A DNA stretch of 64,000 nucleotides, from the NCBI GenBank assembly GCA_035578905.1, contig JAQJVL010000417.1, forward strand, positions 186,001-250,000, given 5' to 3'. Made by a program: the position numbers and the translations under genes. A model generated the notes under the pieces. That model worked only from the letters and a program-made list of their open reading frames with translations, did no database searches and was not told the DNA's origin. Positions 1-63,235 of this stretch are shown piece after piece. Origin of the DNA: Stictocephala bisonia. Lineage: Eukaryota; Arthropoda; Insecta; Hemiptera; Membracidae. How positions within the stretch are numbered: the stretch's first letter is position 1; each line of letters starts with the position of its first letter.

Positions 1-1118
1 TAAAACCCAACATTTTATCAAATTATTTGTTTTATTATTAAATAAAATTATTTAATTAATAAACTACCAGAAGACCTCAATGAGGATCCAATTTTTAAAA
101 AAATTAAAAAATTTAGTAAATTATTGAAATAATCAATCGTACTGAAAGAAAAGACGTTCATTAAAGATATATTTACCAACATTAAAATATTTTTAAATTC
201 TATTTATAAATCATCCAAGTATAATTATTATTAATGAAATGTTATGAAACTAATAATATTATTGTTTATTATTTATTATATACTATGTATTTGTTTAGAT
301 TTACATTTTTAAATCTATTTTGTCAGCTTATGCAACTAAAAAAAAATGCTTAAAGCAATAAATAGTTCCAATTATGTCAGTTCTTAAGGATAACTGTCCT
401 TCATAAAATATTCTTTAAATCTGTCTGATCAAAACAGATTAAATTGTCAGTATTTTAAATTAAAATTTTATGTTGCAGTTTTGGGAATAACCGGAATATT
501 TATATATTTTTCGTTTCTTTTTGCGCTTTTATAGCTTTAGGATATATTTGGTAGGGACCTATGAACAGATATTGCCTTAGAGGCACTAATTTTTGTGTGT
601 GATATTTTGAGTAATATGTGATATTTTATGAAAATTAAATTGTAAATAATTTATATAGTTTGAGTATATTTTATTTTACTTTGCTATGTCCATTTTGTCA
701 TAAAATGGTGTTTAATTTATTTTCTAATTAAAGAAAATGTTTCCAATTTTTGTATTCGACATACTGATTCGTATTTTTGTAAATTTTTTGTGTTTGATAG
801 TATTGTGTATATCTATGTTAGAAATAGTTTAATTTGCAGAAACGTTTAATAAAAATTTATTTAGTTTTAAACATGGGTAAAAGCACACTTTTAAAGATAA
901 TTTCTAAGTAGTCCAATTCAGTGTACACAAAGTAAACTATTCTGCTTTTGAGCTCTATATACCAAATATATTTTTATTTTTGAATGAAGGACCCCCTGAA
1001 CAGACTTTATCAGTCTTAGGGGCCCTATTATTTTTCTCTCTTATGTAAATTATAAACAGTAAAAGTTTTGATATTTTGGTCAGCCTGGATAGGAATAAAA
1101 TAAAAAAATAAAAAAAAA
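1..1118. other. AT-rich DNA, nothing identified
   Basis: No open frame of note, RNA gene or repeat family recognised on either strand. Confidence 0.6.
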
Positions 1119-5976: not shown

Positions 5977-8900
5977 ATATATTGTTGTTGGATCGTCCTG
6001 TATTATTACATATAGTAAAAACTATCCTCTATGTTATCTGCTAAATTTGAGGACGATATAATTTGAACTGTTTATTACGATATAATATCAATCCTTTTCC
6101 TATTTCATTTTATACTCTATGAAATATAATTCAAAGTAAAATAATTCCCAACTACACGTCTGTTATCAACCGTCTTTTCAGCATTAAATTAGGGCACTGT
6201 ATTTGGTAACACCACAGAGAAAAAAGAAACAGATATCACTTTCTTTTGGCCGCAGCGTTCGCCTCAGTGGCAGTTATAATTAGATTACAGCTATCTATAG
6301 AAATCTATATCTAATCTTTATACATCTATAGATTAGATGTATCTACGTTTATCCTTAGGATTTGAGGGAATAAAGGAGGGACTGACAAAGTGCTGGCCCT
6401 GCCATTTGAACGGGAAACTGGAGAAATAAGTGCTCGACACACTATTAGATGCGACTCAGATTCATTCTTCTCTGCGTTAACACACAACAATCAGTAGAAA
6501 TGGTTAATATAATGATTTTAATACTGTTACACGTATATTATAAGTATAATTTAGGAATGAATCCCATTACAATTAAAAATAAAATATTTAAGAATTTTAA
6601 CGTTTTATATTACGGGCCTTTAGGCCTTGGCGGGGATCTAAAATATTATACACATCTCTTGTTAGAAATACTAGTACAAGAAGCGATGTGGTCCAGTATA
6701 ATTTTTGAAAAATTAATATAAATGATGTATATGCCCTTGATCTTTTAAAAGAATGTCGGTTTTGTTTTGGGCGTGGCCGGAGGGAAAATATGAAGTTCAA
6801 GTTTGTAAAGACCATTTCCCGCGCGTCAGTGAGTCATTAGTAACTTCGAAACTAACCAATTGGCACCGCCCATTTATGTGGAGCTATATATGAACTGAAA
6901 ATAAAAGTAGTTATAATTTTTTTATTTAACCTTACTAATTAATTAAGGTCACATTCAAAATAAACTGAATTGATTTTTCAGTTTGTACATTAAATTAAGA
7001 GCATTCAGATTGAAGTATATTAGATACTGTTTGCCTTGGTCTTAAAAAAATTTAGGAATAAAATGAATTTACCCTTTTTTTACATGATCAAATTTTAAAA
7101 TGTAAAAAGATTTTAGCACTTTCTAAAGAAACTAGTCATATATGAATGAAATGAAAAATTTGGAAAAGTAAGAATATAAACACAGATATATTATTATAAA
7201 CCTAAGAGGTGGCCATTCTCTTAGAGATTATTATTTCATTGTATTCACATTTAGTAAGATTTTTTAATAGAACGTAAATCCTACCTTAAAATAACCTTGC
7301 ATTTAATGATTTATTGTCTGTGTGTTTTTTTGTATAAGGAACCTCTAGCAGCGATTCAGTAGGCATACGTGAATAGAAGATAAAAAGTGCGTGATTTTAA
7401 TTTATTAATTATTTTACTCTTATTTTACTATCAGTATTAAAAACTCATGAAATACTATTAGTTTTGAAGATGGATTCGTTCAAGTCTGCACAACAGTTTC
7501 CCTACCATTAATAGGCATAACAGTAATTAATTGTCATTAAAACATTGTTTTACGTTTTGCAGCATAACTCAGCTGTTCTTTATCCATTTCTGTTGAAACA
7601 AACACTGTGAATAATATAGTTAAGATTTACTAAAAAAAATAATTTTGAATTTTGTTTGTAAAATTTGTCAATTTTTAGATATTTCAGTTATAAAAAAATA
7701 AACGTCCGCCATTTTGAAACGGGTGAAGATTTATTTTTTTATGGAAAAAAATAGAGCTACTCTAGGGTAGTAGTATCATGAAGTTTCACAATTGTACCTT
7801 GGATATAAAGTTATGAATTTTTATGTAAAAAACGCATAAAGAGATATAGATGGAAAACTAAAGGTTTTAGGACACACCTTCATATGAAGTTTTTTGCTAA
7901 TTTTTATGTGTACAATAACATCCTAAATTATATAAACAGTTTTACTGAAGACCACGTATATATTTCTTTGTTTATATTAATACCATTTATTAAATATTTT
8001 GAAATTATTAACTATATTTTAAATTAATAAGTATTACATACATTTTCTACCAAAGTAGCTAAGTAGGTTTCACAATAATTGTGATAAACTTTACTCAGAT
8101 TTATATTTATCTTACGCACTATTTTTTTCCTACTTACACGTTCGATTACGGGCGTAAATATGTATTCTTCAACGAAAAAAGATAGTTTAACGCTATTTTT
8201 AAACTGTTATTATTTAGAAAGGATAAGAATCATTTAACTTTTGTTTAGGGGTTACCTTCAACATTTTAACCAACTATTTAGACTATTTCAGATGTATTAA
8301 AATATTTGTTAGTCGGATATAATTATTTTGGAAAGCACCTACTAAATTTATTATTTATCTTAATTACAGATTAATTTTCCAAAACTAGACAATTAAATAG
8401 ACGATATTAATATGTGTATGGTTATATATAGTCAGTGGCTCTATTCCAGGGTGAAACATGTTGAGAGGAATCTGCTGAAAAATATTATTCAGGTCGTGCC
8501 AAGGTCATCATTAAAGTGACTTTTTAGTGTGGATTAATGTAAAAAATTTAAAAGACTACTATTTCAAACTGTGAAATATATTAATTTATTCAATATATAT
8601 AGAAATTATATTGAGAAATATTTATTACTTACCTACTCATACATTTGGGGAGAGTAATGGAATCAAATTGATATTTAAAGGTGTGCATTTGGATTTATTG
8701 ATATTTAAAATTTCAATGTTTTACTGGGTCTCCCACATTTTTCTTTTTACTTATTACAGTATTTAAATCACATGTTGAGCTCTGTATTATTTTGTATATT
8801 GAACATTTGTAAGCCCTTCAAGCTTGGAAAATTTTAAGACCAACTAATACTTTATTTAATTGACAATTTTAAGTAAATAATTTTTATCTTAAATTTATAA

Positions 8901-13297: not shown

Positions 13298-15821
13298 CTA
13301 GTGAGTGTGGGCACGTTCGTGGATGGGAGCGGGGGCACGGTAGGCGTAGCTGTGAGCTACGGGGGCGTGAACGCCGTAGGCAACAGCGCGAGCGGGGGCG
13401 ACAGCCACAGCGGGAGCTGGGACAGCGGCGTAGGCCACAGCGGGAGCGGCAGCTACAGCTGGAGCGGCGTAGGCCACAGCGGGAGCAGGGGCGACAGGGA
13501 CAGCTGGAGCGGGGGCAGCGGCATAAGCCACAGCGGGGGCGGGGGCGACAGGAGCAGCGACTACAGCAGGGCCTTGGACGACGGGAGTGCGGACCTCGAC
13601 CTCACTGACCACGGGGGTGTGGACGGGAACGTCATAAGGCACCTTCTGCACGCTGACTTCGGGTTCGACCTGAGTGACCTGAGGGACAACAGTCTCGACA
13701 GCACGGGCGGGGGCCAGGACAGGGGTCTGGGAGACGGTCTGAGCGGGGGTAGCCAGAGCACCAAGGTCAGGCTTCACAACAGTGGAGGTGTAGCCTGTCA
13801 CCACGGGGGTCTGGGCGTAATGTACGGTCTTGGAGATGGCTACTGCGGGAGCAGGGGCAGGGGCGTAAGCCACAGCGGGGGCTGGTGCAGGAGCGTAGGC
13901 TACGGCAGGAGCGGGAGCAGCGGCGTAGGCTACAGCAGGGGCAGGAGCAGCAGCGTAGGCTACAGCGGGAGCAGGGGCAGGAGCGTAGGCTACAGGGGCA
14001 GGTACGGCTACAGCTGGAGCGACGGGGGCAGGGTAGGCCACGGCGGGGGCGGCGTAGACCCTGGCCTCAGGAAGAGGGGCAGTGGCGGCAGGGAAGACCG
14101 CTGAAGGCCTGGCGGCCGACAGAGCGAGGAGAGCAGACAACACCACCTGAAGAGAAAAAAGAATGTAATATTATTGACGTTAAAAAAGAAATACAATATC
14201 GAATTGTGAAGACCCAGGCATTAAAGTCACCAGTGTAGAACGCTCTGATATTATCATAATTACATAGGCCTTGTTAATTTCTTCTTTGTTTTTGATCTAG
14301 TATTTATTGTATTGATTTAGTACTAAGTAAATAACCTATCAATAAAAGAATATGTGATAAGTCTTATTCGGTTACATCAATGAATAGAACACAAGTCTTT
14401 TTATTTGGAATTGTAAAGGTGTTAGGAATCTTAACATAACAATATTGCACTATACTGCGTTATGTTGACTCGGCTTGGTAATACAACATGGAAAAATGAT
14501 AAAACAAAACTAATTATATCATTAATTAGAAGGCTGACAAGTTTAATAATTACAAATTTATAACATTTCATTATTTTTTATTCTATCTACACCAAAGTCA
14601 TTTTTTATTTACTTAGTCTAAATTTTTAGTGAACCTCCCAAAATTTGATCCCGTGGCCCTCAGATTTGACCAAAATTTGATCCCTGCATATGAAGCAGAA
14701 GTGGTCTTTTAGAATATAATCAGCTGTTTAGTTCGTCATTAGTCTTACTACTATCTGCCATATAATAATTAAAACACATAGGCCTAACATGAACAACTTT
14801 GTGCTTGATGATGGGCCATGGAGTTGCACAGATTTACAATTAGAAGCATTTAACACTTAAAATACTTATTACTTTATGTAAATAACGAGTTCGGACACTT
14901 CATTAAGTAGTGTATCAATTAACCCAACATATTGTATCTTCCTTTGTACAATATGAATTTAAAATGTAATATTAATTATTTTATATACATTTAATTACAC
15001 AAAATATAAACAAAGGTTTAATGGCTAAATTATAAAATATTCTTAACAATTTGTATTATCTGTAGTCATTTTTATTTGAAGGCCTAATGTAGTCTAAATA
15101 TTAAATAAATAAAAACCTTTTACAGTAAAATTAATACATATGGCAGTATATAAGCAATAACTTGATGTAAACAATAGTTAACCATATTTCATACAGCATT
15201 TACTTCCTTTATTAAAATAAAATAATTATTCAACAACAGCAGGAACAAATTTTTAAATAAATTTTTGATCTTCAAATACATATATAAATAATTTCGTTAC
15301 AAATTATTCTATTTTAATTGTTAGATTTTAGGGTTAATAACAAATCTTAACAGGAATATTAGACTTCTATGTTATATTTTGTTTATTTTTTTCAGTTGTA
15401 ATAATTTAGTAACTTGATTCTATTATTAGGCTATACGTTGAGTAAGTATGAGCTTTATATATTCCGTCTATAGCCAAGTGTTTTGTGCTATTATAATAAT
15501 AGTTTGTCTTTTTTCAAGATAAAACTTATTTCTCCTGTATGTAGCTGATCGTGCATATATTGTTTTGTCTACCCATCTATGTATTGTTATCGAATTATAC
15601 ACGTTTGCATTATAAATGAAACAAACAGCAATCTATTGGGAAAAAACAAAGGAAGAAATTTTTCATAAAAAAAATAATAAAATAACATTTTGTGAAAATT
15701 CACGAAAGTATATTTATATAATTTATTTAAAAATTATAATAAAAAAGATAAGAAAACAGAGTTTAAATATACTCAAATGTAGACAAATAGAAATACAGTA
15801 TACACTTACCAGCTTGTACAT
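13298..15821 (-). CDS. Ala/Pro/Val-rich cuticular protein, two exons (join 13298-14146, 15810-15821)
   Basis: Predicted secreted structural protein of the insect cuticle. Exon 1 codes only MYKL; exon 2 continues in phase 0 as VVLSALLALSAA, giving a signal peptide (residues 1-16) before RPSA. The spliced product is 286 residues. Residues about 34-107 are AVAYAAAPAP-type decapeptide repeats. A non-repeat core (about 108-195) includes ISKTVHYAQ and PVVTGYTSTVVKPDLGA. A second AAPAV block covers about 196-255, and the tail ends HERAHTH. This matches the low-complexity CPLCP / 'cuticle protein 16.5-like' families, which lack the chitin-binding RR consensus; the family call is from memory. A 12-nt coding first exon followed by a phase-0 intron is usual for such genes. 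Exon 2 is a GC-rich island in AT-rich DNA, and its 30-bp repeats keep other frames open as shadows. The stop is TAG at 13298-13300. Confidence 0.9.
14147..15809 (-). other. Intron of the cuticular protein gene
   Basis: GT/AG intron in phase 0 (donor GTAAGTG, acceptor ending TCAG). It is AT-rich. I see no recognisable repeat family or other coding sequence in it. Confidence 0.85.
15810..15821 (-). CDS. Coding exon 1 (microexon) of the cuticular protein gene
   Basis: ATG TAC AAG CTG on the minus strand, followed at once by the donor GTAAGTG (15809-15803). The intron is 14147-15809 (1663 bp) and ends TCAG before GTGGTG of exon 2. This start is chosen because exon 2 has no upstream ATG in frame and begins exactly at a splice acceptor, and joining the two gives a classic insect signal peptide. 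Confidence 0.88.
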
Positions 15822-25191: not shown

Positions 25192-26609
25192 AGTTTTAAA
25201 AACACTTGAAACGTTGACCATTTCCAATAAATTTACACACATGAACAATCCAATGCTAACAATTAACTTTCAAACTCTATTTTATGTACAGTACACCCCA
25301 ACTAACTATATTTATCTGTTTAAATTATGTACAAATTTAAATAATATTGTATTAAATAAAAAATAATTTTCAACTTAAGTCCGTACCAAAATTAGTTTTA
25401 CATTTTGTTGGTTTTGTTTTGTAATTTTTATCGGACTATGTATAAGTGGCTAGTCAACTCTTTTTCGTGAGTTAGCCTTACTTCGTGCTTTTTATGTTTT
25501 TATTCTGCTTTTAGTGCTTCATACAGTAACCGCATCAACCTATTTTAACTGTTACTTTTAGCCTCACTTTTTTCTAACTTACGTTTTGTTTTAAGATTTT
25601 AAAAAGAAACAAGTTCTTTGAATGTGTATTATATGAAGCTCAAAATGAGACATCAGTCAAAAGTTTACGATATAATATAATGTTTCTTGTGATGATGTTT
25701 AACCATGCTCTTTGGAGCTCATATTTTCGACGGTCGACAGAAGACCCTTCAGAGTTCACGGTGAAACATTCAATTAGACTTTATCGGTTCAATTCTTCAG
25801 CAGAATTCCCTTCGATATTGTGTCACTGAATGTGATTTGCAAAAAATCGCACGTGTTCAATTTAAAATTGTTATCTCATTTGCCAAATACGTAACGTAAC
25901 TGACAAAGAGCCAAATTCTCTACATTGGAACGTCATATAATGGTAGGAAAACTAACAAATTCTTCTTCTACGAAAAACACAGACCACAAATAAAAACTTC
26001 TTCCAACTAAAGATCACACGTTAGCAGTTTATTCTTATGAAAAATCCTGGTTCTATAATTCTTATTACAAATGCATCATTGCCATTGATACAACGAAAAT
26101 GATGTGCCTTAAACATGTGTTAAACGTCTTTTCGACGAAGAAAAAAAATGTTTTTCTAACACTTAGATTTCCGTTATTTACTGTAGTGTAAGTACTAACT
26201 TTGGGTAGGATGTCCGTTTCCCCAGCGAGCACCTATTTAGAGATTGCTAAAAGAAGTTAAACTCTTTAAATACCTGTAAAATATTGAGATATTACAAAAT
26301 TTTTACAGCATTTTTGAATAATATCAAAATTCAATGATAGTTACCGGTGATCTTGCAACAGTTAAAATCAAAATATTGGAAATTAAACGATACACCCTGT
26401 TTCAAGCCTGCAAACCTATGTCACAATGATATAATATCAACTATGAACATTATCGGCAGGTTCTATCTAAATATTAATGGTACGGTATTTAATTACGTAC
26501 ACTATCTACGTGCAATATCTATAAATATTGAGTAACACAGATTACCGATGATTGTGAATTAGCAAAACGAATGCCAACTCAGGGGTCTTTACACGAATAC
26601 CATTTTACG

Positions 26610-26915
26610 TGTGTGGGTGGACGGGTGGGTCAATAACACTGTATGTATGTGGGTGGGTCAACACCACTGTACGTATGTGGGTGGGTGGGTGGGTCAATAC
26701 CACTGTTCGTGTATAGGCAGGTGGGTGGGTCAATACCACCGTACGTGTATGGGCGGGTGGGTGGGTCAATAACACTGTACGTGTATAGGCGGGCGGGTGG
26801 GTCAATACCACTGTACGTGTATGGGTGGGTGGGTGGGTCAATACCACTGTACGCGTATGGGCAGGCGGGTGGGTCAATACCACCGTACGTGTATGGGCGG
26901 GAGGGTGGTTTATTG
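26610..26915. repeat. 36-bp GC-skewed minisatellite
   Basis: About eight units of GGGTGGGTCAATACCACTGT plus ACGTGTATGGGCGGGT-type sequence. Because 36 is a multiple of three, frames stay open on both strands; I see no sign they are genes. G-runs are dense on the plus strand. A related array in opposite orientation is at 48640-48750. Confidence 0.95.
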
Positions 26916-27582: not shown

Positions 27583-30500
27583 TTGAGGGACAAAACTAAT
27601 AACTATGTATTAACATATGAAGCCGTTATGGCGAAATGGGGCTTAGAACAAGGTATATGGGATTATACAAGAGAAGAGATAAGACTAAATAATTTAACTA
27701 GGTCGTGTATTGACCATATTTATTACAGAGTAAATAGGCCTATAGACAGAATTTTTACAGGGGTTATAAAGACAATGATATGAGATCACTACCCTATAAC
27801 TGGCAGATTTGAGATATTGTAGGGAGGAATAGGAGACGCAGAGGTAGAAAAATATACGAAAATAAATAAATTTTTACTGAAAGCAAAGATAAAAGAAGAG
27901 AACTGGACCGTAAGCCAATACAAGGATGTAAACAGGGGATTTGAAGAAATAATCGGTAAGTTTACTAAAAATTATAAAATCTGCTCTAGCCCGATAAAAA
28001 AAAGCAAGGTGGGGGGAACCACGAGCAAAGCCGTTTATATAAAAAATGGCCTATGAAAGAGTGGATTAATAATAAACTAATAAACCTAATCAGAGAAAGA
28101 GAGAGAGAGAGAATTTTTAGACTGTGGAAAGGGGACCCCACAAATAACAGTTATAGGAATTTATACAAGCGGCTAAGAAATAGGCTGAACAATTATTATT
28201 TATATAAAGAGAAGGAAAAATCGATACTACCAACAATGTTTTGAAAAAAATAGCAATAACATGAGAAAATTATGGGAGAATATTAACTGTTTACTAGGTA
28301 GAGGATACAAAAACAGTATTGATTCAACAATCAAAACTGCTTTGGGGAAATCGATGAAGAAAGATGAAATTGTAAATGGCTTTGCTCAATTCTTTATTGA
28401 AGGTATAGAATGCTTAAAGCATGATTGTGTACACAAAACGTTAGAACAAGACAGGTATGATGAAGCGTATGAATATAATAATGAACCGATATATAATTTG
28501 TATATACCAAAGATAACACAAAATAAGATGAAATCAATAATACTTAAAATGAAAACTAACAAATCTCCTGGTGACGATGGGATACGAATGGAGGATATGA
28601 GGGAGATAGTAGATGAAATCAGCGAACCTCTAAGCAAACTGGTGAATGAATCAATTTCACAAGGACAATTCACTAACTGCTTAAAAAAGTCACTGATAAG
28701 ACCAATTTATAAAAGCAAAAGTAAGAAGGAATAACAGAATTATCGTCCAATTGCAATTTTGACTTCTTTAGATAAAATAATCGAGATATACGTATTAGAC
28801 TGTCTAAATAAATATTTAACAGAAAATGATATACTTAATGATAAACAATATGGATTTAGAAAGAATTGCAGTACAGAAATGGCATTACAGGAATTTACAA
28901 ATGTAGCTAATAGAATTATGAATAACAAAGAGCATGGTCTGGCCTTATTTATTGATTTTTCAATAATATCCACTGCGTTTGACACAGTGGAACATAACTG
29001 TATAATTATGGCGTTGAGCAAGATAGGAGTGAGGGCCCCTATTTAAGATGGTTCAAGAGCTATCTTAGTGGTAGAAAACTTGCCGTTAAAGCATTAAACA
29101 CTACAAGTGACGAAAAATATATTAAATATGGCGTTCCACAAGGAAGTCAGTTAGGGCCTGTCCTGTTTATAATTTATATGAATGATGTGTAAAAACAGGA
29201 AACATGAAAGCCACATATGGGCTTTTGCAGATGATGTGCTTATCCTAGCAAAAGATAGGTATTTACATTTAGCAGAGGAAAAGCTACAGAGAGATTTTAA
29301 AGTTTTCAATAAATGGGCTCATGATAATGGATTGATTATAATAGCCAGAAAACTAATTTAATGCATATACATCAAAAAAATATTAAGATTGAAAAAGAAA
29401 TCAATATTAAACTTCATAACTGTAATTGTTTACATGTTGAGGAGCAGTGTCAATGTGAAGATATTAAATTAGTAAACGTTACCAAATATTTGGGATTAAT
29501 GGTAGACAATAAACTGACGTGGAAATAACATATAGTGTCACTACATAAAAAACTTGTGCCATGCACTGCGATAATGTATAGATTGAAAAATAAAGCAACA
29601 CATCTGGTTAAGAATACAATATATAAGGCTTTTTTCGAATCATTGTTGAGATATGGAATATCAGTCTGGGGGACATCAGCAAAGAGCCATTTAAACCAGA
29701 TAATAAATCTGCAAAAGTTTGCGAACTCTGTATGGTGACGAAATTCAGTTTGTAAATGGCAATATTAATTTAAATGAATTCAGTTTCATGGGACAATTGA
29801 CACCGAAAGGTATGTATGAATTAAAAATTATATTAGATAACTTTAAATATAGTAAATTTAAAACATCTAACAACAGGAGTTTTGAAACTAGACATATTAA
29901 AAAATATGTTACCTCATTCCCCAGAACAAACTATGGGCGAAGACTCCCAGAGTTCATTATTCCTTATCTTTATAATTTATTACCTGAAGAAATAGAAAAC
30001 ATATCTAACTATGCAGAGTTTAAGAGAGCTGTGTTTTTATGGCTTACATACTTCAGAACTGGAAATGAAAACAATTACCTGTACTTGTAATCCTAGAATT
30101 TCAATGATTCCAGCTTCAGGACACTTATGCACTGCACTTACACTAATACTCTAAACGAACATATTTTAACGTAACATGTGATTTTGAATTTAATTTATGT
30201 GTATAGTAGGTATTCAAAATGTAATATAGTAAATTTAGTGTTAATTGTATTGTAAGATGTTAAATTGGAAAGACAACAGGTTGTGTGATGGGCAGTGTCG
30301 GCCACGGATCGCGCGTCATGTAACTCGTAAACGAACAAACTTGCCAAGTTTGTTAGTAGGCTGATGATGAACAACTGATATTAAAATCAAGAAAGGAAAT
30401 AGACAGGATTCCAAAATATAAACCTGTCTGTTGCATGAAAAATTCAATTGTTCATTTCAATTTGACAGTGCATCTGGGGCCGGCACGTTCCAACTTTCTC

Positions 30501-30690: not shown

Positions 30691-30929
30691 TAATTAATAT
30701 TGTGGTGTTTACAAAACATATATCCTATAGGAAAACTTTAACCTTTTTTCAACTTTTTTTACATTTATGAATTTTGTATCTAAGTAAGTATGATTTATAT
30801 ATAGACTATGACAGTAAATATTTTCTATACTAAGGTTATTGATAATATACAAATTGTTCATCAAACAAAAATGTATGGTTTTTACATTTATTATTTACTC
30901 TTTTTGCTATTTAACCTTGCTTCAGCTAA

Positions 30930-32281
30930 TACTAGCTCTGTTCATAAAGTAATTAAACTTGCCTTAATAACTCTGTTCATAAAGTAATTAACCTTGCCTT
31001 CATAACTCTGTTCATAAAGTAATTAACCTTGCCTTCATAACTCTGTTCATAAAGTAATTAACCTTGCCTTCATAACTCTGTTCATAAAGTAATTAACCTT
31101 GCCTTCATAACTCTGTTCATAAAGTATTTAACCTTCCCGTCATAACTCCGTTCATAAAGTATTTAACCTTCCCGTCATAACTCCGTTCATAAAGTATTTA
31201 ACCTTCCCGTCATAACTCCGTTTATAAAGTATTTAACTTTGCCATCCTAACTCTCTTCATAAAAGATTTAACCTTGCCTTTCTAACTCTGTTCAATAAGA
31301 TTTAATCTTGCCGTTCTAACTCTGATCACACAAAGTATTTAACCTTGTAGTACTAATTCTGTTCATAAAGTAATTAGCTTTGCTGCCTAACTCTATTCAT
31401 AAAGTGATTAACCTTGCCGTCATAACTCTGTTCATAAATTAATTAACCTTGCCGTACTGATTCTGTTCATGAAGTATTTAACCTTGCCATCCTAACTCTG
31501 TTCATAAAGTAATTAACCTTGTCGTACTAACTCTGTTCATGAATTAATTAACCTTGCCGTACTGTTCTGTTCATGAAGTATTTAACCTTGCCATCCTAAC
31601 TCTGTTCATAAAGTAATTAACCTTGTCGTACTAACTCTGTTCATAAATTAATTAACCTTGCCGTACTGATTCTGTTCATGAAGTATTTAACCTTGCCATC
31701 CTAACTCTGTTCATAAAGTAATTAACCTTGTCGTACTGATTCTGTTCATGAAGTATTTAACCTTGCCATCCTAACTCTGTTCATAAAGTAATTAACCTTG
31801 TCGTACTAACTCTGTTCATAAATTAATTAACCTTGCCGTACTGATTCTGTTCATGAAGTATTTAACCTTGCCATCCTAACTCTGTTCATAAAGTAATTAA
31901 CCTTGCCGTCATAACTCTGTTCATAAAGTAATTAACCTTGCCGTACTGATTCTGTTCATGAAGTATTTAACCTTGCCATCCTAACTCTGTTCATAAAGTA
32001 ATTAACCTTGCCGTCATAACTCTGTTCATAAAGTAATTAACCTTGTCGTACTGATTCTGTTCATGAAGTATTTAACCTTGCCATCCTAACTCTGTTCATA
32101 AAGTAATTAACCTTGCCGTACTAACTCTGTTCATGAATTAATTAACCTTGCCGTACTAATTCTGTTCATGAAGTATTTAACCTTGCCATCCTAACTCTGC
32201 TCATAAATTAATTAACCTTGCTGTACTAATTCTGTTCATAAATTAATTAACCTTGCCGTACCAATTCTGTTCATGAAGTAA
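30930..32281. repeat. 35-bp minisatellite with higher-order structure
   Basis: About 38 units of CTCTGTTCATAAAGTAATTA plus ACCTTGCCGTACTAA-type sequence. Variants (AAGTAATTAA, AAGTATTTAA, AATTAATTAA; CATCCTAA, CGTACTGA, CGTCATAA) alternate in repeated blocks of two to four units from about 31440 on. No coding potential. Confidence 0.97.
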
Positions 32282-32579
32282 TGTTATTAAAGAATATGTA
32301 TTTTTATTTTAAGACAATTCTTGTTATATTTCTTACTTTTTAAATAAAACAAATTCTAATTAGAAATTAATAAACTTTGTTGTAAAGCAATAGTAGAAAC
32401 ATTTCAAAATATATACACGAAAAAAATTAGTTACAAATAATATAGCCTATAAAAGACGAAGTTATTGGAAGAAGAAAAAGACATTTTTGTAAAAACTGAT
32501 TCTATAAATATTTAATTTTGATTCAATAAATGTATTTATTTATACTCAAGACCATCAGTTTAGAGATTTGTACGTATTA

Positions 32580-37620: not shown

Positions 37621-39059
37621 TTAAAAAATCGTTTTATTTTTTATTTCAGTTGGTGACATTATGGTTATAAAATTGCTTTTTTAAATTGAAAAATACACGT
37701 TCAAAAACACGTTTCTGTGGTTTGTAATACTCGAACATGAGATTTTTAAAAATATATTACATTATAATACGTCTTAAGATGCGTTTACATTACTGTATCG
37801 ATTTTATTAATATTTTTATTCAACATATAAGATCATATTTCCATTTTATATCAGTTTCTCACTGTACCTGTCACTCATTGCTTAACCTTATATCTCCCCC
37901 CTACATACGTTATCCTTATATATCCGCCTACATGCATTTTTAATTTTTGTATTTACTATTACATTATTAGTAGTGTATTATGTAACTTAGTATTTACTGT
38001 ATAAGGTTTAAATATTTTAGTTTAGTTAAAGAAGAAGTTATGACACTTGAGTTTACACTTGTTTGCAAAATTGAATAATTTGATTTTTCACTTCGTTGAA
38101 AAAACTCAACAAAGCAGTCAGCAACAGAAAATCCTCGTGACCGTCTAAATATACACCAGAACAATTTTTAATCATTCGTATTTTGAGATTGGAGAGGATG
38201 ATGTAATGTTTTTCAGTTCTATTCCTGTGTATTACAATCCAAACAAGCATGATGTAAGCGATTTGTTGACCCATTTTTTAGAGTTAATGCATAGATATAC
38301 GTTTTTTCAACGTATATATTTTAAGTTGAGTTACCTTAAATTCATGTTCAAACCCTTTAACTATGAATGCATTCATGCAAACGAACTCAAACTTTTATAT
38401 GTAACATTTGAAATAATAATACAATAAAAATCGAGACTTTGTAACTGTTAAATGTCGCATAGACCTTAATATCTATGTATTCGAAAAACGATGTACTCAC
38501 TCATCGTGAAATCTCCGGAACCACTAAACAGATATCGCTGATATTTGGAGGGAAGTTAGCTATTGTATCATGCTTTTCCATTCGTAAGTGGTAAACATAT
38601 ACCATACATATTTTTTTTTTCCCATTAGAGTAACATTGGCATTTATTTAAGTCAGTATATTATTAAAACATAACTTTTCTGATTTTGTTTTCATTATGAA
38701 ATGCTTAAAGCCATTTCTACTCACTGTGATATGATTGTACTACTTCGCATCCTCCTGAAGTAGACTTATAGATGATAAGGACCATAAACATTTGTTATCT
38801 ATGAGAACGGTAGCAGGATGAGCTTTTATATTGATGCGATGGTCTAGAAAGAACCACAGAGGAAAGGGTAAGCAATCGTAGAGAACCATCCCGTAGCAAA
38901 GCATGGGCTGTCATCTAGTGGCATATATCTTATAATATATGTAAATGAATTACAATATTTTAGAACTTAGGCTTAAGCGGCCGGTTTCATAACTAGAATC
39001 TACAGTTTCCGGTGACAACCGCGTCAAGGTACTATCTACAATATTTACAAGATGACCAG

Positions 39060-39100
39060 ACGTTTCGCCCATACTGTGATGTGGCATCCTCAGTCTCAGA
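39060..39100 (-). ncRNA. Hammerhead-ribozyme-like motif, minus-strand arm
   Basis: Complement reads CTGAGGA, then TGCCACATCACAGTATGGGC, then GAAACGTC. Stem II (GCCA/TGGGC) is kept here, but the 5' partner for stem I has changed (GAGA instead of ACCA). Confidence 0.5.
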
Positions 39101-39103
39101 GAA

Positions 39104-39142
39104 ACCACTGAGGATGCCACATCATAGTATGAAACGTCTGGT
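39104..39142 (+). ncRNA. Hammerhead-ribozyme-like motif, plus-strand arm
   Basis: Stem I ACCA (39104-39107) / TGGT (39139-39142), core CTGAGGA (39108-39114), GAAA (39131-39134), then CGTC with the predicted cleavage after C 39138. Compared with the opposite arm, four bases (GGGC-type) are missing before GAAA, removing the 3' side of stem II. Activity is therefore doubtful. Confidence 0.5.
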
Positions 39143-39635
39143 CATCTTTTAAATATTGTAGATAGTACCTTGACGCGGTTGTCACCGGAAACTGTAGATT
39201 CTAGTTACAATATTTTAGTTTGTTCTATTTTTGAAGCAACAGGCCAACACTTAAGTTCATTGGATTATATATTGGATAATATAGATTAAAGCAGATGAAA
39301 TTCTTTATGAAAATATTGATTCTACTTATTTATGTATTTGTGGGTATGTCGGAATTGGGTAATGAAGAAATAAGTTAGTTTGATCCAAATAAATATTGAA
39401 AGGATTTTTCTTGCCAAGCTAAAATAATAAGAAAACTGGAAGAGCTACATAAGAAGTAAAATCTATACTAAAAGAATCATAGTTTAAAAACAAATACTGA
39501 TCTCGCGTAACATAGCTAAGTCACAGATAAGAAGGACACAGAGGTCGTATTGGGCTGAATGTGTGTCGAGTAGTTATTTCTCTAATTTGCATGCGATGAC
39601 TGGGCCAGTACATTTTTAGTTCCTTTTTCATTCAT

Positions 39636-39950: not shown

Positions 39951-40712
39951 TATTATACCCTTCGTTATATCCTCAAATATCCATGATTAATTTATTCATT
40001 ATTGGTATGCAGATGTATGAGTTGTATATAACTGCCAGTGAGGTATTCGCTGTGCAAATAAGAAAGCGAAATATGTGTCTTTTTTCTCTGAGGCTAAGTC
40101 CAAGTTTTATAACCGTACAACTTGGTACTAATTACTTAGTGAATATTGAAACGAATTATAAACGTTAGAAAATTTGTTTTATTCAAGCCCTCTAAAACAA
40201 TGTTTGCCAGTAATTGGGTTAATATACTATGAGCAATTAAAATTGCCAGGGCTCAGTTGGCCTTTTGTGTAAACCCAAACATTGTGTAAAGCCGAGTTTC
40301 CTCACATTTTCAGGCCAGCAATCATCGACAATAACTAGCCCATGAGTACTTCTTGGAAGTATTGCAACACCGTGTCAGGTGCAATGTGCCGTTTAAAGAA
40401 GGTGTTACGGCTAAACGCAAATTTATCCGTTAAGTGGAGCAAGGATAGAATCAAAATAACTAAAGAATGCTGGCAGAACTTGGGTTATTATTTTTTTTTC
40501 TTTCATTATTTAAGACTCAACGAGTCTTGAGATATAAACTAAAAATGGTCGATTAGTTATTGAACTATACTTAGTTGTAATACTGCGTTATATTCAAACA
40601 TAATTAAACCTAATATATAAATATATCCTTACAAAACCTAACCTAACAATACCCAACCCATCCTTACAAAACATACCTTAAACAAACTTGCACTTTTCCG
40701 GTTCTAAAACGA

Positions 40713-42430
40713 TTACCAATACTCTGATTGAAACCGCCTTGCCATATTACCAATACTCTGATTGAAAACCCCTTGCCATATTACCAATACTCTGATTGAA
40801 AACCCCTTGCCATATTACCAATACTCTGATTGAAAACCCCTTGCCATATTACCAATACTCTGATTGAAAACCGCCTTGCCATATTACCAATACTCTGATT
40901 GAAAACCGCCTTGCCATATTACCAATACTCTGATTGAAAACCCCTTGCCATATTACCAATACTCTGATTGAAAACCGCCTTGCCATATTACCAATACTCT
41001 GATTGAAAACCGCCTTGCCATATTACCAATACTCTGATTGAAAACCCCTTGCCATATTACCAATACTCTGATTGAAAACCGCCTTGCCATATTACCAATA
41101 CTCTGATTGAAACCCCCTTGCCATATTACCAATACTCTGATTGAAACCGCCTTGCCATATTACCAATACTCTGATTGAAAACCCCTTGTCATATTACCAA
41201 TACTCTGATTGAAACCGCTTTGTCATATATTATTGGTAATAATATGGCAGATTGAAACCCCCTTGCCATATTACCAATACTCTGATTGAAACCGCCTTGC
41301 CATATTGCCAATACTCTGATTGAAACCGCCTTGCCATATTACCAATACTCTGATTGAAACCGCCTTGCCATATTACCAATACTCTGATTGAAACCGCTTT
41401 GCCATATTACCAATACTCTGATTGAAACCGCCTTGCCATATTACCAATACTCTGATTGAAACCGCCTTGCCATATTACCAATACTCTGATTGAAACCGCC
41501 TTGCCATATTACCAATACTCTGATTGAAACCCCCTTGCCATATTACCAATACTCTGATTGAAACCGCCTTGCCATATTACCAATACTCTGATTGAAACCC
41601 CCTTGCCATATTACCAATACTCTGATTGAAACCACCTTGCCATATTACCAATACTCTGATTGAAAACCGCCTTGCCATATTACCAATACTCTGATTGAAA
41701 CCCCCTTGCCATATTACCAATACTCTGATTGAAACCGCCTTGCCATATTACCAATACTCTGATTGAAACCCCCTTGCCATATTACCAATACTCTGATTGA
41801 AACCCCCTTGCCATATTACCAATACTCTGATTGAAAACCGCCTTGCCATATTACCAATACTCTGATTGAAACCGCCTTGCCATATTACCAATACTCTGAT
41901 TGAAACCGCCTTGCCATATTACCATTACTCTGATTGAAACCGCCTTGCCATATTACCAATACTCTGATTGAAACCCCCTTGCCATATTACCAATACTCTG
42001 ATTGAAACCGCCTTGCCATATTACCAATACTCTGATTGAAACCCCCTTGCCATATTACCAATACTCTGATTGAAACCGCCTTGCCATATTACCAATACTC
42101 TGATTTAAACCGCATTGCCATATTAATAATACTCTGATTGAAACCCCCTTGCCATATTACCAATACTCTGATTGAAACCACATTGCCATATTACCAATAC
42201 TCTGATTGAAACCCCCTTGCCATATTACTAATACTCTGATTGAAACCGCCTTGCCATATTACCAATGCTCTGATTGAAAACCGCCTTGCCATATTACCAA
42301 TACTCTGATTGAAACCCCCTTGCCATATTACCAATACTCTGATTGAAACCGCCTTGCCATATTACCAATACTCTGATTGAAACCACCTTGCCATATTACC
42401 AATACTCTGATTGAAACCACCTTGCAATAT
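40713..42430. repeat. 34-35-bp minisatellite, about 50 units
   Basis: Unit TTGCCATATTACCAATACTC plus TGATTGAAACCGCC, varying in GAAAACCGCC, GAAACCCCC and GAAAACCCC. Units are highly uniform, so the array was homogenised recently. An inverted partial unit, TATTGGTAATAATATGGCA, sits at 41231-41249. Confidence 0.98.
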
Positions 42431-43897
42431 TCGGGATCAGGACAACACTTTCGCACAATTTTAGTATCCCCAACGCTATATTTAAGGAAAAATAGTTCTC
42501 CGTTTGTCCTTGATTGATTTCATAATTTTGCCAAATTTTCTGCTGAAACTCATACAATCATATTAATACTTCTCAATAAATAATCTACGTCAAAAAGAAA
42601 AAAGTCTGTAAAACAAAACAAAAAAGCATCTGCTATATATAATTACCATTTTAAAAATCAACAATAATTTAAAATTATAGCTACTTTTTAAACTTATATC
42701 TCAACTAACATGCAAAGATCAATACTGACACTTCTTTTGCGAAATACACATTTCTCGAGAGGGAGTCAGATCCTTCCACGATAGATTCAGACTAAATAGG
42801 TCATCATATAACTCCTTCAAGTAAATATGTCCCTCAACTCACCCTACATGTGTAATACAAATGTCAGCCCTCTTTCCCACCTCCAACACTCTATCAATTC
42901 CTGAATATAGAAACTAAATCTGATTCTAAATACTCCCTGTATATGTAAGGTGTTATTTCGTACGCCAACCTGACTAGTGTACTCGTTGATATCCCAGGAA
43001 AGTTATCTTTCTCAGTGACTATATCCTGATAGTCATTCCAACTCAATCTTGATGGTCTGACGAGTGATCTCTGCTTTCTCCTTAACTACGAAAACTGTAA
43101 ACAGTAATTTGTTTGGATTGAGTGTACGCAGGTCTGCGCTATTGGGCGATGATTTGAATAATCAAGCCCTTTTCACTTGGACCGTTTTTTCTCTGCTTAG
43201 AAGCTTTCTAACGGATGACAGCACTCAATCCGAGTTAACTCACCGTTTCGTCAAACTTAATAGAAATAACAAACCAATAGGGACAACATTATATATAATA
43301 AAACAGTCTACTGTACTTTTCCTCACTTATTAAATTTATAATATACTAACAACTAAACAATTCTTGTTATTATTTTTTTACGTCTTTATCCTCATCATGT
43401 TTACAAGTATGTTTAGCACCAGATAATCTTGTTATCCTGGAATTAAGTTGTTGAAAAGAGTTAAATAGGTCAACTTCATAAATTAATAAGGCTTCATTTA
43501 ATGTGAGGAAAGTGGAACTAAAAACAAGTTTCCGCTTGTTGTTATATTCACATATAAGATTGGACAAAATTGCGTCACTTCAAATTCATATGATACATCT
43601 TATTTTAAAAATTGATTGTTTAAAATAGCGTTTGAGCTGGACCAATATAAAGTAAAGACGAAAATGTGTACATCGATACAAATTATCCCAAACATGGCAT
43701 TATTGTACCTCTCAGAAAAACTAGAATTTAAAACTTTTACAGAATCCTTTATTTTAATTTGGACATACCTACTATTTAGAAAACATATTTTAGACAATGC
43801 AACACTGTAAAAACATTCTCAAACTCTTTATTTTGGTGCATATTTAAAAAATGTAATGCAGACATAGTTTTTATGCTTAAATAAAGTAGATATCCCC
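42431..43897. other. Intergenic DNA, no gene
   Basis: Short open frames here have no recognisable domain, start context or splice context. Confidence 0.55.
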
Positions 43898-48639: not shown

Positions 48640-48750
48640 TAACCCACCCGCCCACCCATACACGTTCAGTGGGACTGACCCACCCACTCACCCATACACG
48701 TACAGTGAGATTGACCTAACCGCCCACCCATACACGTTCAGTGGGACTGG
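48640..48750. repeat. 36-bp minisatellite, inverted relative to 26610-26915
   Basis: About three units of CCCACCCATACACGTTCAGT plus GGGACTGACCCA-type sequence. These are complements of the GGGTGGG...CACTGTACGTGTATGGG unit at 26.6 kb. Confidence 0.85.
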
Positions 48751-58655: not shown

Positions 58656-59097
58656 CTCAGGACCTGTCATATAATTTGTAGTGTGTTAAGAGTCTGCTAC
58701 ACCAGCCGACATATTGGATTTGGATCTCCAAAAAAGTCAATTGTAATTTAAAAAAAGTTACAGCTTTATTTACGAACATACCATTTTAAACTTGACTTTA
58801 TTTGAAAGAGGATAGGCCTACTTTTGCCAAGTTCCCCCTTGGACAGATTTTTTCTAGAGGTTTTTGTTTAATTTTTGTATCACAATAACTACACTGCTTA
58901 AAATTCGAGGTGGACCAATGTGATATTTAGACAAGAGCAAATATGTTTATGAAAGTGCACTTCCTCATTTTGATCTTTTTTTTTCATTAAAATGCAATAC
59001 ACCGTTAATTGTGGCCTGCAAAATCTAAAGATCTTAATCCTATAAAAAACTTGTAGGATTGTCTTAAGAGGTAAATCAGGGATCACGCTGTTACCTC

Positions 59098-59525
59098 TGA
59101 CAACTTTGAAGAACTTCAACAGGACCCCTGTTACCCCTGACCACTTTGAAGAACTTTAACAGGACCCCTGTCAACCCCTGGTACCCCTGACAACTTTGAA
59201 GAACTTTAACAGGATCCCTGTTACCCCTGACCACTTTGAAGAACTTCAACAGGACCCCTGTTAACCCCTGGTACCCCTGACCACTTTGAAGAACTTCAAC
59301 AGGACCCCTGTTAACCCCTGGTACCCCTGACAACTTTGAAGAACTTCAACAGGACCCCTGTTAACCCCTGGTACCCCTGACCACTTTGAAGAACTTCAAC
59401 AGGACCCCTGTTAACCCCTGTTACCTCTGACAACTTTGAAGAACTTCAACAGGACCCCTGTTACACCTGACCACTTTGAAGAACTTCAACAGGACCCCTG
59501 TCAACCCCTGTTACTCCTGACCACT
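59098..59525. repeat. Minisatellite of alternating 40- and 50-bp units
   Basis: Units of TGACCACTTTGAAGAACTTC plus AACAGGACCCCTGTTACCCC. Longer units carry an extra 10-bp duplicate of the AACCCCTGGT type, and CCACTTTG/CAACTTTG variants alternate. Frames are open on both strands as a by-product. Confidence 0.95.
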
Positions 59526-59529
59526 TTGC

Positions 59530-61959: not shown

Positions 61960-63235
61960 AACTTGTCCACCCACCCATCATGTATATGAACAACTTGTCT
62001 ACTTATCAACACTCGTACAAGAACAGCTTGTCTCCTTATCCACACTCGTACATGATCAACTTGTCTACTTATCCACACTCGCACATGAACAGCTTGTCTC
62101 CTTATCCACACTCGTACATGATCAACTTATCTACTTATCCACACTCGTACATGAACAACTTTTCTACTTATCCACACCCGTACATGAATACCTTGTCTAT
62201 TTATCCACACTCGCACATGAACAGCTTGTCTCCTTATCCACACTCGTACATGATCAACTTGTCTACTTATCCACACTCGTACATGAACAACTTTTCTACT
62301 TATCCACACCCGTACATGAATACCTTGTCTATTTATCCACACTCGCACATGAACAGCTTGTCTCCTTATCCACACTCGTACATAATCAACTTGTCTACTT
62401 ATCCACACTCGTATATGAACAACTTTTCTACTTATCCACACCCATACATGAATAACTTGTCTATTTATCCACACTCGTACATGAACAACTTGTCTACTTA
62501 TCCACACTCGTACATGAACAACTTGTCTACTTATCAACACTCGTACATGAATAACTTGTGTCCTTATCCACACTCGTATAAGAACAGCTTGTCTCCTTAT
62601 CCACACTCGTACATGAACAACTTGTCTACTTATCAACACTCGTACATGAATAAATTGTGTCCTCATCCACACTCGTACAAGAACAGCTTGTCTCCTTATC
62701 CACACTCGTACATGAACAACTTGTCTCCTTATCCACACTCGTACATGAACAACTTGTCTACTTATCCACACTCGTACATGAACAACTTTTCTACTTATTC
62801 ACACCCGTACATGAATAACTTGTCTATTTATCCACACTCGTACATGAACAACTTGTCTACTTATCCACACTCGTACATGAACAACTTTTCTACTTATTCA
62901 CACCCGTACATGAATAACTTGTCTATTTATCCACACTCGTACATGAACAACTTGTCTACTTATCCACACTCGTACATGAATAACTTGTCTACGTATCCAC
63001 ACTCGTAAATGAACTACTTGTCTATTTATCCATACTCGTATATGAACAATTTGTCTCCTTATCCACACTAGTACATGAACAACTTGTCTACTTATCCATA
63101 CTTGTACATGAACAACTTGTCTACTTATCAACACTCGTACATGATCAACTTTTCTACTTATCCATACTTGTACATGAACAACTTGTCTACTTATCCACTC
63201 TTGTACATGAACAACTTGTTTACCCAATAACATAC
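61960..63235. repeat. 33-bp minisatellite, about 38 units, open in several frames
   Basis: Unit ACTTGTCTACTTATCCACAC plus TCGTACATGAACA. As 33 is divisible by three, there is a 342-codon plus frame (61980-63008) of 11-residue repeats (NNLSTYPHSYM). A second plus frame (to 62455) and two minus frames (62127-62771, 62898-63257) are also open. There is no signal peptide, no splice context and no non-repeat domain. A four-unit higher-order block recurs at about 62113-62440. I treat it as non-coding DNA. Confidence 0.9.

What the first reader, a model, noticed from the sequence alone, without database searches (positions are those of the whole stretch)
38964..39204. Minimal foldback element with hammerhead cores and a 14-bp target duplication
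The sequence shows an almost perfect ~100-bp palindrome with a 29-bp unique lead, bounded by an exact 14-bp duplication. Both arms carry CTGAGGA...GAAACGTC, the hammerhead core with the very short helix III known from Penelope-like elements and retrozymes. It has no coding sequence, so it must have moved in trans. A 241-bp mobile unit made of little but a paired ribozyme may be an undescribed non-autonomous family.
Basis: partly seen in the sequence, partly recalled or inferred. Interest (0 to 1): 0.8.

Follow-up and report, generated by a model that had tools for sequence, protein, structure and literature searches.

The report
Two-sided footprint of a Penelope-like retroelement
The hairpin-like insert is not a new mobile family: it is a very short insertion of a Penelope-like retrotransposon, apparently made when both cut ends of the host DNA were extended by copying the start of the element's RNA, and its sister copies help show how these poorly understood elements insert.

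Summary
In detail: a ~100-bp near-perfect inverted repeat with a one-sided lead, inside an exact 14-bp duplication. The interpretation changes. The right arm is the 5' end of a Penelope-like element (PLE) transcript: initiator, hammerhead-like motif overlapping the ATG, first ~32 codons; the lead is the PLE "tail". Longer copies in this 1.68-Gb genome continue into a promoter and an RT/GIY-YIG-type ORF. It is a body-less PLE insertion, not a family of its own.

Sister copies show a rule. Outer ends lie at two RNA positions (+114..125 and about +150). Of 27 head-to-head pairs found by a motif inside both arms, 26 have exactly one tail (independent choice allows at most half; P=2e-7). Inner ends vary (41 distinct pairs in 45), often lie at the RNA 5' end, and are joined with filler or short overlaps. 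Duplications are ~13 bp. Both arms of an insertion share rare variants. Best reading: each staggered target end primes cDNA on RNA of one source locus, one from each start site, and the cDNAs are end-joined. No Rfam hammerhead model matches, and this copy's hammerhead is incomplete in both arms.

The parts
38950..38963 (+). left copy of the target-site duplication (its last TTAG also fits the end of the PLE tail)
   Evidence: exact 14-bp repeat; comparison with other copies
38960..38989 (-).
   Evidence: BLAST of the L054-derived reference to the copies; 1605 exact genome matches to its 26-mer
38960..39094 (-). tail arm: PLE RNA +16..+150, antisense on the + strand
   Evidence: 98.6% match to the PLE end in L082; (L048)
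39090..39207 (+). short arm: PLE RNA about -1..+120; outer end = RT start site 1
39090..39094 (.). apex: overlap of the two arms (RNA start joined to position +16, sharing AGT)
   Evidence: overlap 5 for L048, which is this place; mirrored and other apices in other copies
39092..39092 (+). inferred transcription start (A of TCAGTC) of the PLE RNA
   Evidence: TATA about 30 bp upstream in long copies, read by eye; 21 of 45 tail arms and 25 of 45 short arms end within -4..+4 of it
39104..39142 (+). minimal hammerhead-like motif (ACCA-CTGAGGA...GAAACGTC-TGGT); lacks GGGC of helix II in this copy
   Evidence: sequence, majority of copies; no Rfam hammerhead match
39114..39207 (+). start of the PLE open frame (ATG inside the hammerhead motif); shifted in this copy by the loss of 4 bases
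   Evidence: reference frame MPHHSMGETSGHLVNIVDSTLTRLSPETVDSSYDTGRLSL; GETSG also at the start of the Anolis relative P0014
39205..39218 (+). right copy of the target-site duplication (its first TTA also fits the end of the short arm)
   Evidence: exact 14-bp repeat

Best explanation
The insert is a body-less insertion of a Penelope-like retroelement made by two-sided target-primed reverse transcription. Both target strands are cut about 13 nt apart in AT-rich DNA. One target 3' end primes cDNA at RNA start site 2 (about +150, which gives the tail), the other at start site 1 (+114..125). Both cDNAs run toward the 5' end of RNA from one source locus, often to the transcription start, and their inner ends are joined by end-joining, with filler or short overlaps. 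The result is a head-to-head inverted repeat with one tail inside a target duplication. Shown by sequence: PLE identity, two outer end positions, one tail per insertion, variable apices, duplications, shared variants. Inferred: the enzyme doing each step, their order, whether one RNA molecule is copied twice or two RNAs of one locus are used, and the joining pathway.
For: PLE body and ORF upstream of the same end in long copies. Outer ends of inverted arms at +114..125 in all 45 inverted insertions of groups B+C (the script accepted 108..131, the listings show no other). 26 of 27 tail-blind pairs have exactly one tail. 41 distinct inner-end pairs in 45; 20 of 45 differ by more than 20 nt. 25 of 45 junctions with filler; of 20 without filler, 15 overlap by 2 or more, against 27% of 1350 simulated blunt joins. 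Duplications median 13 bp. Shared rare variants 40 against 4.4 permuted, 0 of 2000. Published in vitro work: an Anolis PLE protein cuts and extends both strands, starts internally at two sites that bound the tail, and is predicted to dimerise (PMC11167929, main text).
Against: The Anolis paper saw no difference in start site between the strands, so it does not itself show the one-site-each rule. 4 of the 38 group B loci other than the window's end near the RNA start with no inverted arm found (L052, L062, L063, L076), and L068, L070, L092, L095, L111 also lack one in what was fetched. One pair of 27 has two tails (L117). Inner ends of the two arms are correlated (Spearman 0.41, p=0.005). Overall overlap of at least 1 (19 of 45) is not above simulation (53%) unless filler junctions are set aside. 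Only one genome was examined.
Confidence: 0.8

Rival explanations
1. Self-priming: one cDNA or an antisense template folds back on a palindrome and copies itself, giving the inverted arms, as suggested for Adineta vaga PLEs (PMC3846280, passages).
For: Arms of one insertion share rare variants; the 5' end holds a quasi-palindrome TCTCAGAGA, and some apices overlap by about 10 nt there (L020, L021, L096).
Against: Inner ends differ by more than 20 nt in 20 of 45 insertions, 25 of 45 junctions have filler, and a copied arm would not explain why exactly one arm carries the tail in 26 of 27.
Confidence: 0.08
2. A self-contained non-autonomous foldback family, copied as a unit through a hairpin RNA.
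For: The window's apex type (+16 joined to the RNA start) occurs in 11 of 35 window-like copies.
Against: That set was chosen by similarity to the window. Its mirror image, which copying as a unit cannot make, occurs in 7 of the same 35; in groups B and C the type is found in 2 of 38 and 1 of 20 by the script, and one of the 2 in B (L057) has filler and the other (L071) is the same place as L010 of group A. 41 of 45 apex pairs are distinct.
Confidence: 0.04
3. Two successive nested PLE insertions in opposite orientation.
For: Gives inverted arms.
Against: One duplication surrounds the pair, the arms share rare variants, all 27 close pairs are head-to-head, and 26 of 27 have one tail.
Confidence: 0.02
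4. A DNA-transposon MITE or foldback transposon with long terminal inverted repeats.
For: Long inverted repeats and a direct duplication.
Against: The arms are the 5' end of a PLE, the ends are asymmetric, and copies with the same outer ends contain anything from no body to over 1.4 kb of PLE body.
Confidence: 0.01

Closest known systems
Poseidon PLE of Anolis carolinensis (PAc; PMC11167929, passages and main text read)
   Same: RT plus GIY-YIG protein; an Anolis carolinensis protein (P0014; not shown to be PAc itself) is 49% identical over 99% of the query; ORF starts inside the hammerhead motif (GETSG shared); two internal RT start sites bounding a tail; AT-rich targets; both strands cut and extended in vitro.
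   Different: The paper reports no strand difference in start sites and, in the parts read, does not mention inverted pLTRs; here start sites are paired one to each arm, and over a thousand tail ends are found.
EN-containing Penelope elements of Adineta vaga (PMC3846280, passages read)
   Same: pLTR with TATA and initiator-like motifs reaching into the ORF, inverted pLTR head-to-head, 31-bp tail on one inverted pLTR, target duplications (8-10 bp in the passages).
   Different: There the inverted pLTR flanks an ORF-bearing element and is ascribed to self-priming; here most inserts examined have no body, duplications are about 13 bp, and the data fit two-sided priming.
Metazoan retrozymes with type I hammerheads (PMC7229834, abstract and outline; PMC7761336, passages)
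   Same: Small non-coding inserts carrying a type I hammerhead-like motif, moved in trans.
   Different: Retrozymes are direct tandem repeats spread through circular RNA; here repeats are inverted and no direct tandem pair was seen among 27 close pairs.
LINE-1 twin priming (recalled)
   Same: The second target end also primes on the RNA, giving inverted pieces joined head to head.
   Different: In twin priming the pieces are adjacent parts of one RNA; here the same RNA part is present in both arms, and it is the usual outcome.

Membership tests
Penelope-like element (EN-containing) | Reverse transcriptase domain in the associated ORF | tested here: met
   RVT_1 E=2e-11 in P0001, the ORF next to the same end in L082; weak sequence matches to telomerase RT (E=0.009); 2205 relatives among 7986 scored
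Penelope-like element (EN-containing) | GIY-YIG endonuclease domain | tested here: inconclusive
   Pfam reported no GIY-YIG domain in P0001 at E<=0.01; but GVYEIPCSCGSVYIGETKR aligns with the same region of P0014 and others, with conserved Y, Y and G, and 2 of the 120 listed relatives bear PF01541
Penelope-like element (EN-containing) | pLTR with tail at one end and inverted pLTR | tested here: met
Penelope-like element (EN-containing) | Target-site duplication | tested here: met
   68 of 79 insertions with at least 9 bp, mismatched-locus control 0.4%
Penelope-like element (EN-containing) | The window insert itself codes for the enzymes | tested here: not met
   no body between the arms; it is a product of the element, not a complete element
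Hammerhead ribozyme (minimal type I, PLE kind) | Match to a curated hammerhead model | tested here: not met
   no Rfam hammerhead match; such variants lack helix III (PMC7761336)
Hammerhead ribozyme (minimal type I, PLE kind) | Conserved core with helices I and II | tested here: inconclusive
   family majority has core, 4-bp helix I and a short helix II with one extra U (by eye; one of two folds of the 51-nt piece shows them in part), but energies equal shuffles; the window copy is incomplete in both arms
Hammerhead ribozyme (minimal type I, PLE kind) | Self-cleavage | not testable with these tools
   needs an assay; the Anolis PLE motif cleaved only with protein
Retrozyme | Direct tandem repeats of a hammerhead unit | tested here: not met
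   all 27 adjacent motif pairs under 6 kb, among 100 listed of 1903 places, are head-to-head

The most novel reading that the evidence does not exclude
PLE insertion is normally a two-sided reaction with a built-in asymmetry: the enzyme (perhaps a dimer) uses the two start sites of one RNA, or of two RNAs held at one locus, one for each target strand. The inverted pLTR and the one-sided tail, long-standing oddities of PLEs, are then both direct products of this single reaction.
Probability: 0.5. Interest if true: 0.75.

Novelty: new member of a known kind. Interest (0 to 1): 0.55.

Why it matters
How PLEs insert is open: the 2013 rotifer paper suggests self-priming on an antisense template, and the 2024 in vitro paper leaves second-strand and repair steps to be validated. 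This genome has 1605 exact matches to the tail end, many on inserts short enough to read from end to end. They record which start sites were used, where each cDNA stopped and how the two were joined, so the mechanism can be tested by counting. They also warn that such inserts can be mistaken for foldback or MITE families.

Tried and rejected
Rfam hammerhead search: no match; the MIR807 and other microRNA-precursor matches stay below gathering scores and are explained by the near-perfect hairpin. Folding of short hammerhead pieces: energies like shuffles. Self-propagating foldback family, nested insertions and MITE: rejected for the reasons given among the rivals. Independent RNA sources for the two arms: rejected by shared variants. 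Arm ends at the hammerhead cut: 4 of 90 within +50..+54 in B+C, 0 of 68 in A; inconclusive. L045 looked like a two-tailed insert, but its flanks are inverted copies of each other too, so it was left out by the outer-end rule. Rows dropped: L019, L031, L033, L047 (same flanks as other loci) and L048 (the window itself) before the counts; also L071 (same place as L010). L071 was not dropped, so one search counts one place twice. One search's 45 junctions include L048 and leave out L072; one search's 45 insertions leave out L048 and include L072.

Full report
What is in the sequence. The window carries an exact 14-bp repeat (38950-38963, 39205-39218) around two inverted arms of about 100 bp, 96-99% complementary in the two stretches reported, with a lead on the left only. 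As RNA the insert folds far better than 200 shuffles. The window lies in a 1.68-Gb genome of 11105 contigs.

Copies. A search with 38964-39204 gave 80 match rows from 40 scored of 1719 first-look candidates; 39 copies besides the window's were fetched (group A, L009-L047). They were chosen by similarity to the window, apex included. Copies typically begin with (TAATC)TTAGAACTTAGG and end with TTCTAGTTA(T). A second search with the tail arm alone (40 scored of 554) gave group B: 39 of its 40 places (L048-L077, L086-L094; the 40th is L020 of group A). L048 is the window itself and L071 is the same place as L010. A pattern search with the tail-end 26-mer gave 1605 exact matches and 0 for the control (an intact PLE frame would also contain the 26-mer). 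Group C is the first 20 of the 100 listed places, one already held (L036) skipped (L095-L114).

What the arms are. In long copies (such as L053, L054, L055, L058, L059, L064, L065, L070) the arm continues upstream into CTGTTATAAAGC...TTTCAGTCTCAGAG: a TATA box about 30 bp before a TCAGTC initiator (spacing counted by eye, motif names recalled). Taking the A of TCAGTC as +1, the ATG of CTGAGGATGCC lies at +23 and opens MPHHSMGETSGHLVNIVDSTLTRLSPETVDSSYDTGRLSL through arm and tail. Upstream, L082 has a 777-residue open frame ending WEPILSKLK, with RVT_1 at 2e-11. Residues 140-777 have 2205 relatives at E<=0.001 among the 7986 candidates scored; the 120 listed include a leafhopper protein at 61%, an Anolis carolinensis protein at 49% and many other insect proteins. 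The first part of the frame is a repeat outside the PLE (by eye). Pfam did not report GIY-YIG in it, but GVYEIPCSCGSVYIGETKR aligns with the GIY-YIG-type region of relatives. The arms are thus the 5' end of a PLE.

The hammerhead. The family majority ACCA-CUGAGGA-U-GCC...GGGC-GAAACGUC-UGGU has the core, a 4-bp helix I, a short helix II with one extra U, and no helix III loop (by eye). A review describes PLE hammerheads as minimal type I motifs lacking helix III (PMC7761336, passages). In the Anolis PLE the ORF starts at stem II and the cut lies 26 bp into it (PMC11167929), and the Anolis protein P0014 has GETSG near its start. No Rfam hammerhead family matched, and short pieces fold no better than shuffles. 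In the window copy the right arm lacks GGGC and the left arm stops at +16, so neither has a whole hammerhead. Ribozyme activity is unproven for the family and unlikely for this copy.

One tail per insertion. Leaving out the window's own place, 45 of 58 group B and C loci (28 of 38 and 17 of 20) have an inverted short arm in the stretch examined, with outer end at +114..125, while the tail arm ends near +150. Of the 13 others, L054 and L064 have it further out (L078 and L082), L113 has a partner motif 2.9 kb away, L088 runs off the fetched piece, L052, L062, L063 and L076 end near the RNA start with none found, L068, L070 and L092 have none in the fetched flank (9.9 kb for L070, as L084), and L095 and L111 are short and single. 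These loci were chosen by their tail, so I made a tail-blind test: the 18-mer GGAAACTGTAGATTCTAG, inside both arms, has 1903 matches; the 100 listed contain 27 adjacent pairs under 6 kb, all head-to-head. Of the 27, 23 have exactly one exact tail, 1 has two (L117, no duplication seen by eye) and 3 had none exact; reading those three shows one changed or slightly shortened tail each. So 26 of 27 have exactly one tail. If each end chose its site independently at most half would (P=2.1e-7).

Apices. Among 45 inverted insertions of B and C (window excluded) there are 41 distinct pairs of inner ends; 21 tail arms and 25 short arms end within -4..+4 of the inferred RNA start, 14 insertions both; 20 differ by more than 20 nt. 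Tail arms reach from -919 to +115 and short arms from -366 to +105. The two ends correlate (Spearman 0.41, p=0.005), which I read as long templates giving long arms on both sides. Junctions (45; with L048, without L072): 25 with filler, 1 with neither, 19 overlapping by at least 1. In 1350 simulated blunt joins 53% overlap by at least 1 and 27% by at least 2; of the 20 observed without filler, 15 overlap by at least 2. The window's apex type recurs in 11 and its mirror in 7 of 35 group A loci, but in 2 of 38 B loci (L071, also in A, and L057, which has filler) and 1 of 20 C loci.

Duplications and templates. Duplications are at least 9 bp in 68 of 79 insertions (one place counted twice), median 13 in each group, 80% A+T in those; mismatched loci reach 9 in 0.4%. 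Non-majority bases are shared by the two arms of one insertion at 40 places over 78 insertions, against 4.4 on average in 2000 permutations (maximum 16); 34 against 2.8 with CpG sites masked; 25 against 2.1 in the 44 of B and C. Both arms thus come from one source, one RNA molecule or RNAs of one locus. Hints against one molecule: in L053 and L065 one arm goes to -823 and -378 while the other stops at -4, and in L102 the tail arm has two recurrent variants that the other arm lacks. Gene conversion between arms is another possible cause of sharing.

Mechanism. These facts fit two staggered cuts, priming by both target ends, one from each RNA start site, and end-joining of the two cDNAs. The Anolis PLE protein was reported to cut and extend both strands, to start internally at sites bounding the tail, and to be a predicted dimer (PMC11167929, main text); it reports no start-site difference between strands. 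Self-priming, the published suggestion (PMC3846280, passages), does not fit unequal inner ends, filler or the one-tail rule.

Novelty. Inverted pLTRs and the one-sided tail are in print, as are two RT start sites and two-strand extension. In six library searches and the papers opened (PMC11167929 main text; passages of PMC3846280, PMC7761336, PMC12910113; abstract and outline of PMC7229834) I did not see these joined into a two-sided mechanism or a one-tail count. Two hammerhead papers were not held, and the original Penelope papers were not seen. I file the insert as a new member of a known kind; the mechanism evidence is its main value.

Noticed in passing
window 40712-42431, 61960-63223, 30908-32282, 59088-59528: Internally repetitive stretches in a self-BLAST of the window, shifted by multiples of short units: tandem arrays.
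   Followed up: no
window 28189-28734 (+): 181-residue open frame that looks by eye like part of a non-LTR retrotransposon reverse transcriptase.
   Followed up: no
window 13298-14170 (-): 290-residue open frame rich in AAPAVAY-type repeats, by eye like an insect cuticular protein, in a local GC peak.
   Followed up: no
window 26596-26908 and 48642-48744; L082 about 7157-7359: A minisatellite-like repeat 77-86% alike in the window and between the inverted arm and the PLE body of L082; how it came to lie there is unexplained.
   Followed up: no
L045 500-920: A foldback insert with tails on both sides whose flanks are also inverted copies of each other: a larger palindrome or an assembly effect.
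   Followed up: partly
L117 1-581: The one pair of 27 with two tails; holds a promoter piece between the arms and no duplication seen by eye, perhaps a recombinant of two insertions.
   Followed up: partly
group B and C arms, RNA positions +50..+54: 4 of 90 arm inner ends lie next to the expected hammerhead cut (+51/52); too few to say whether some templates were ribozyme-cut.
   Followed up: partly
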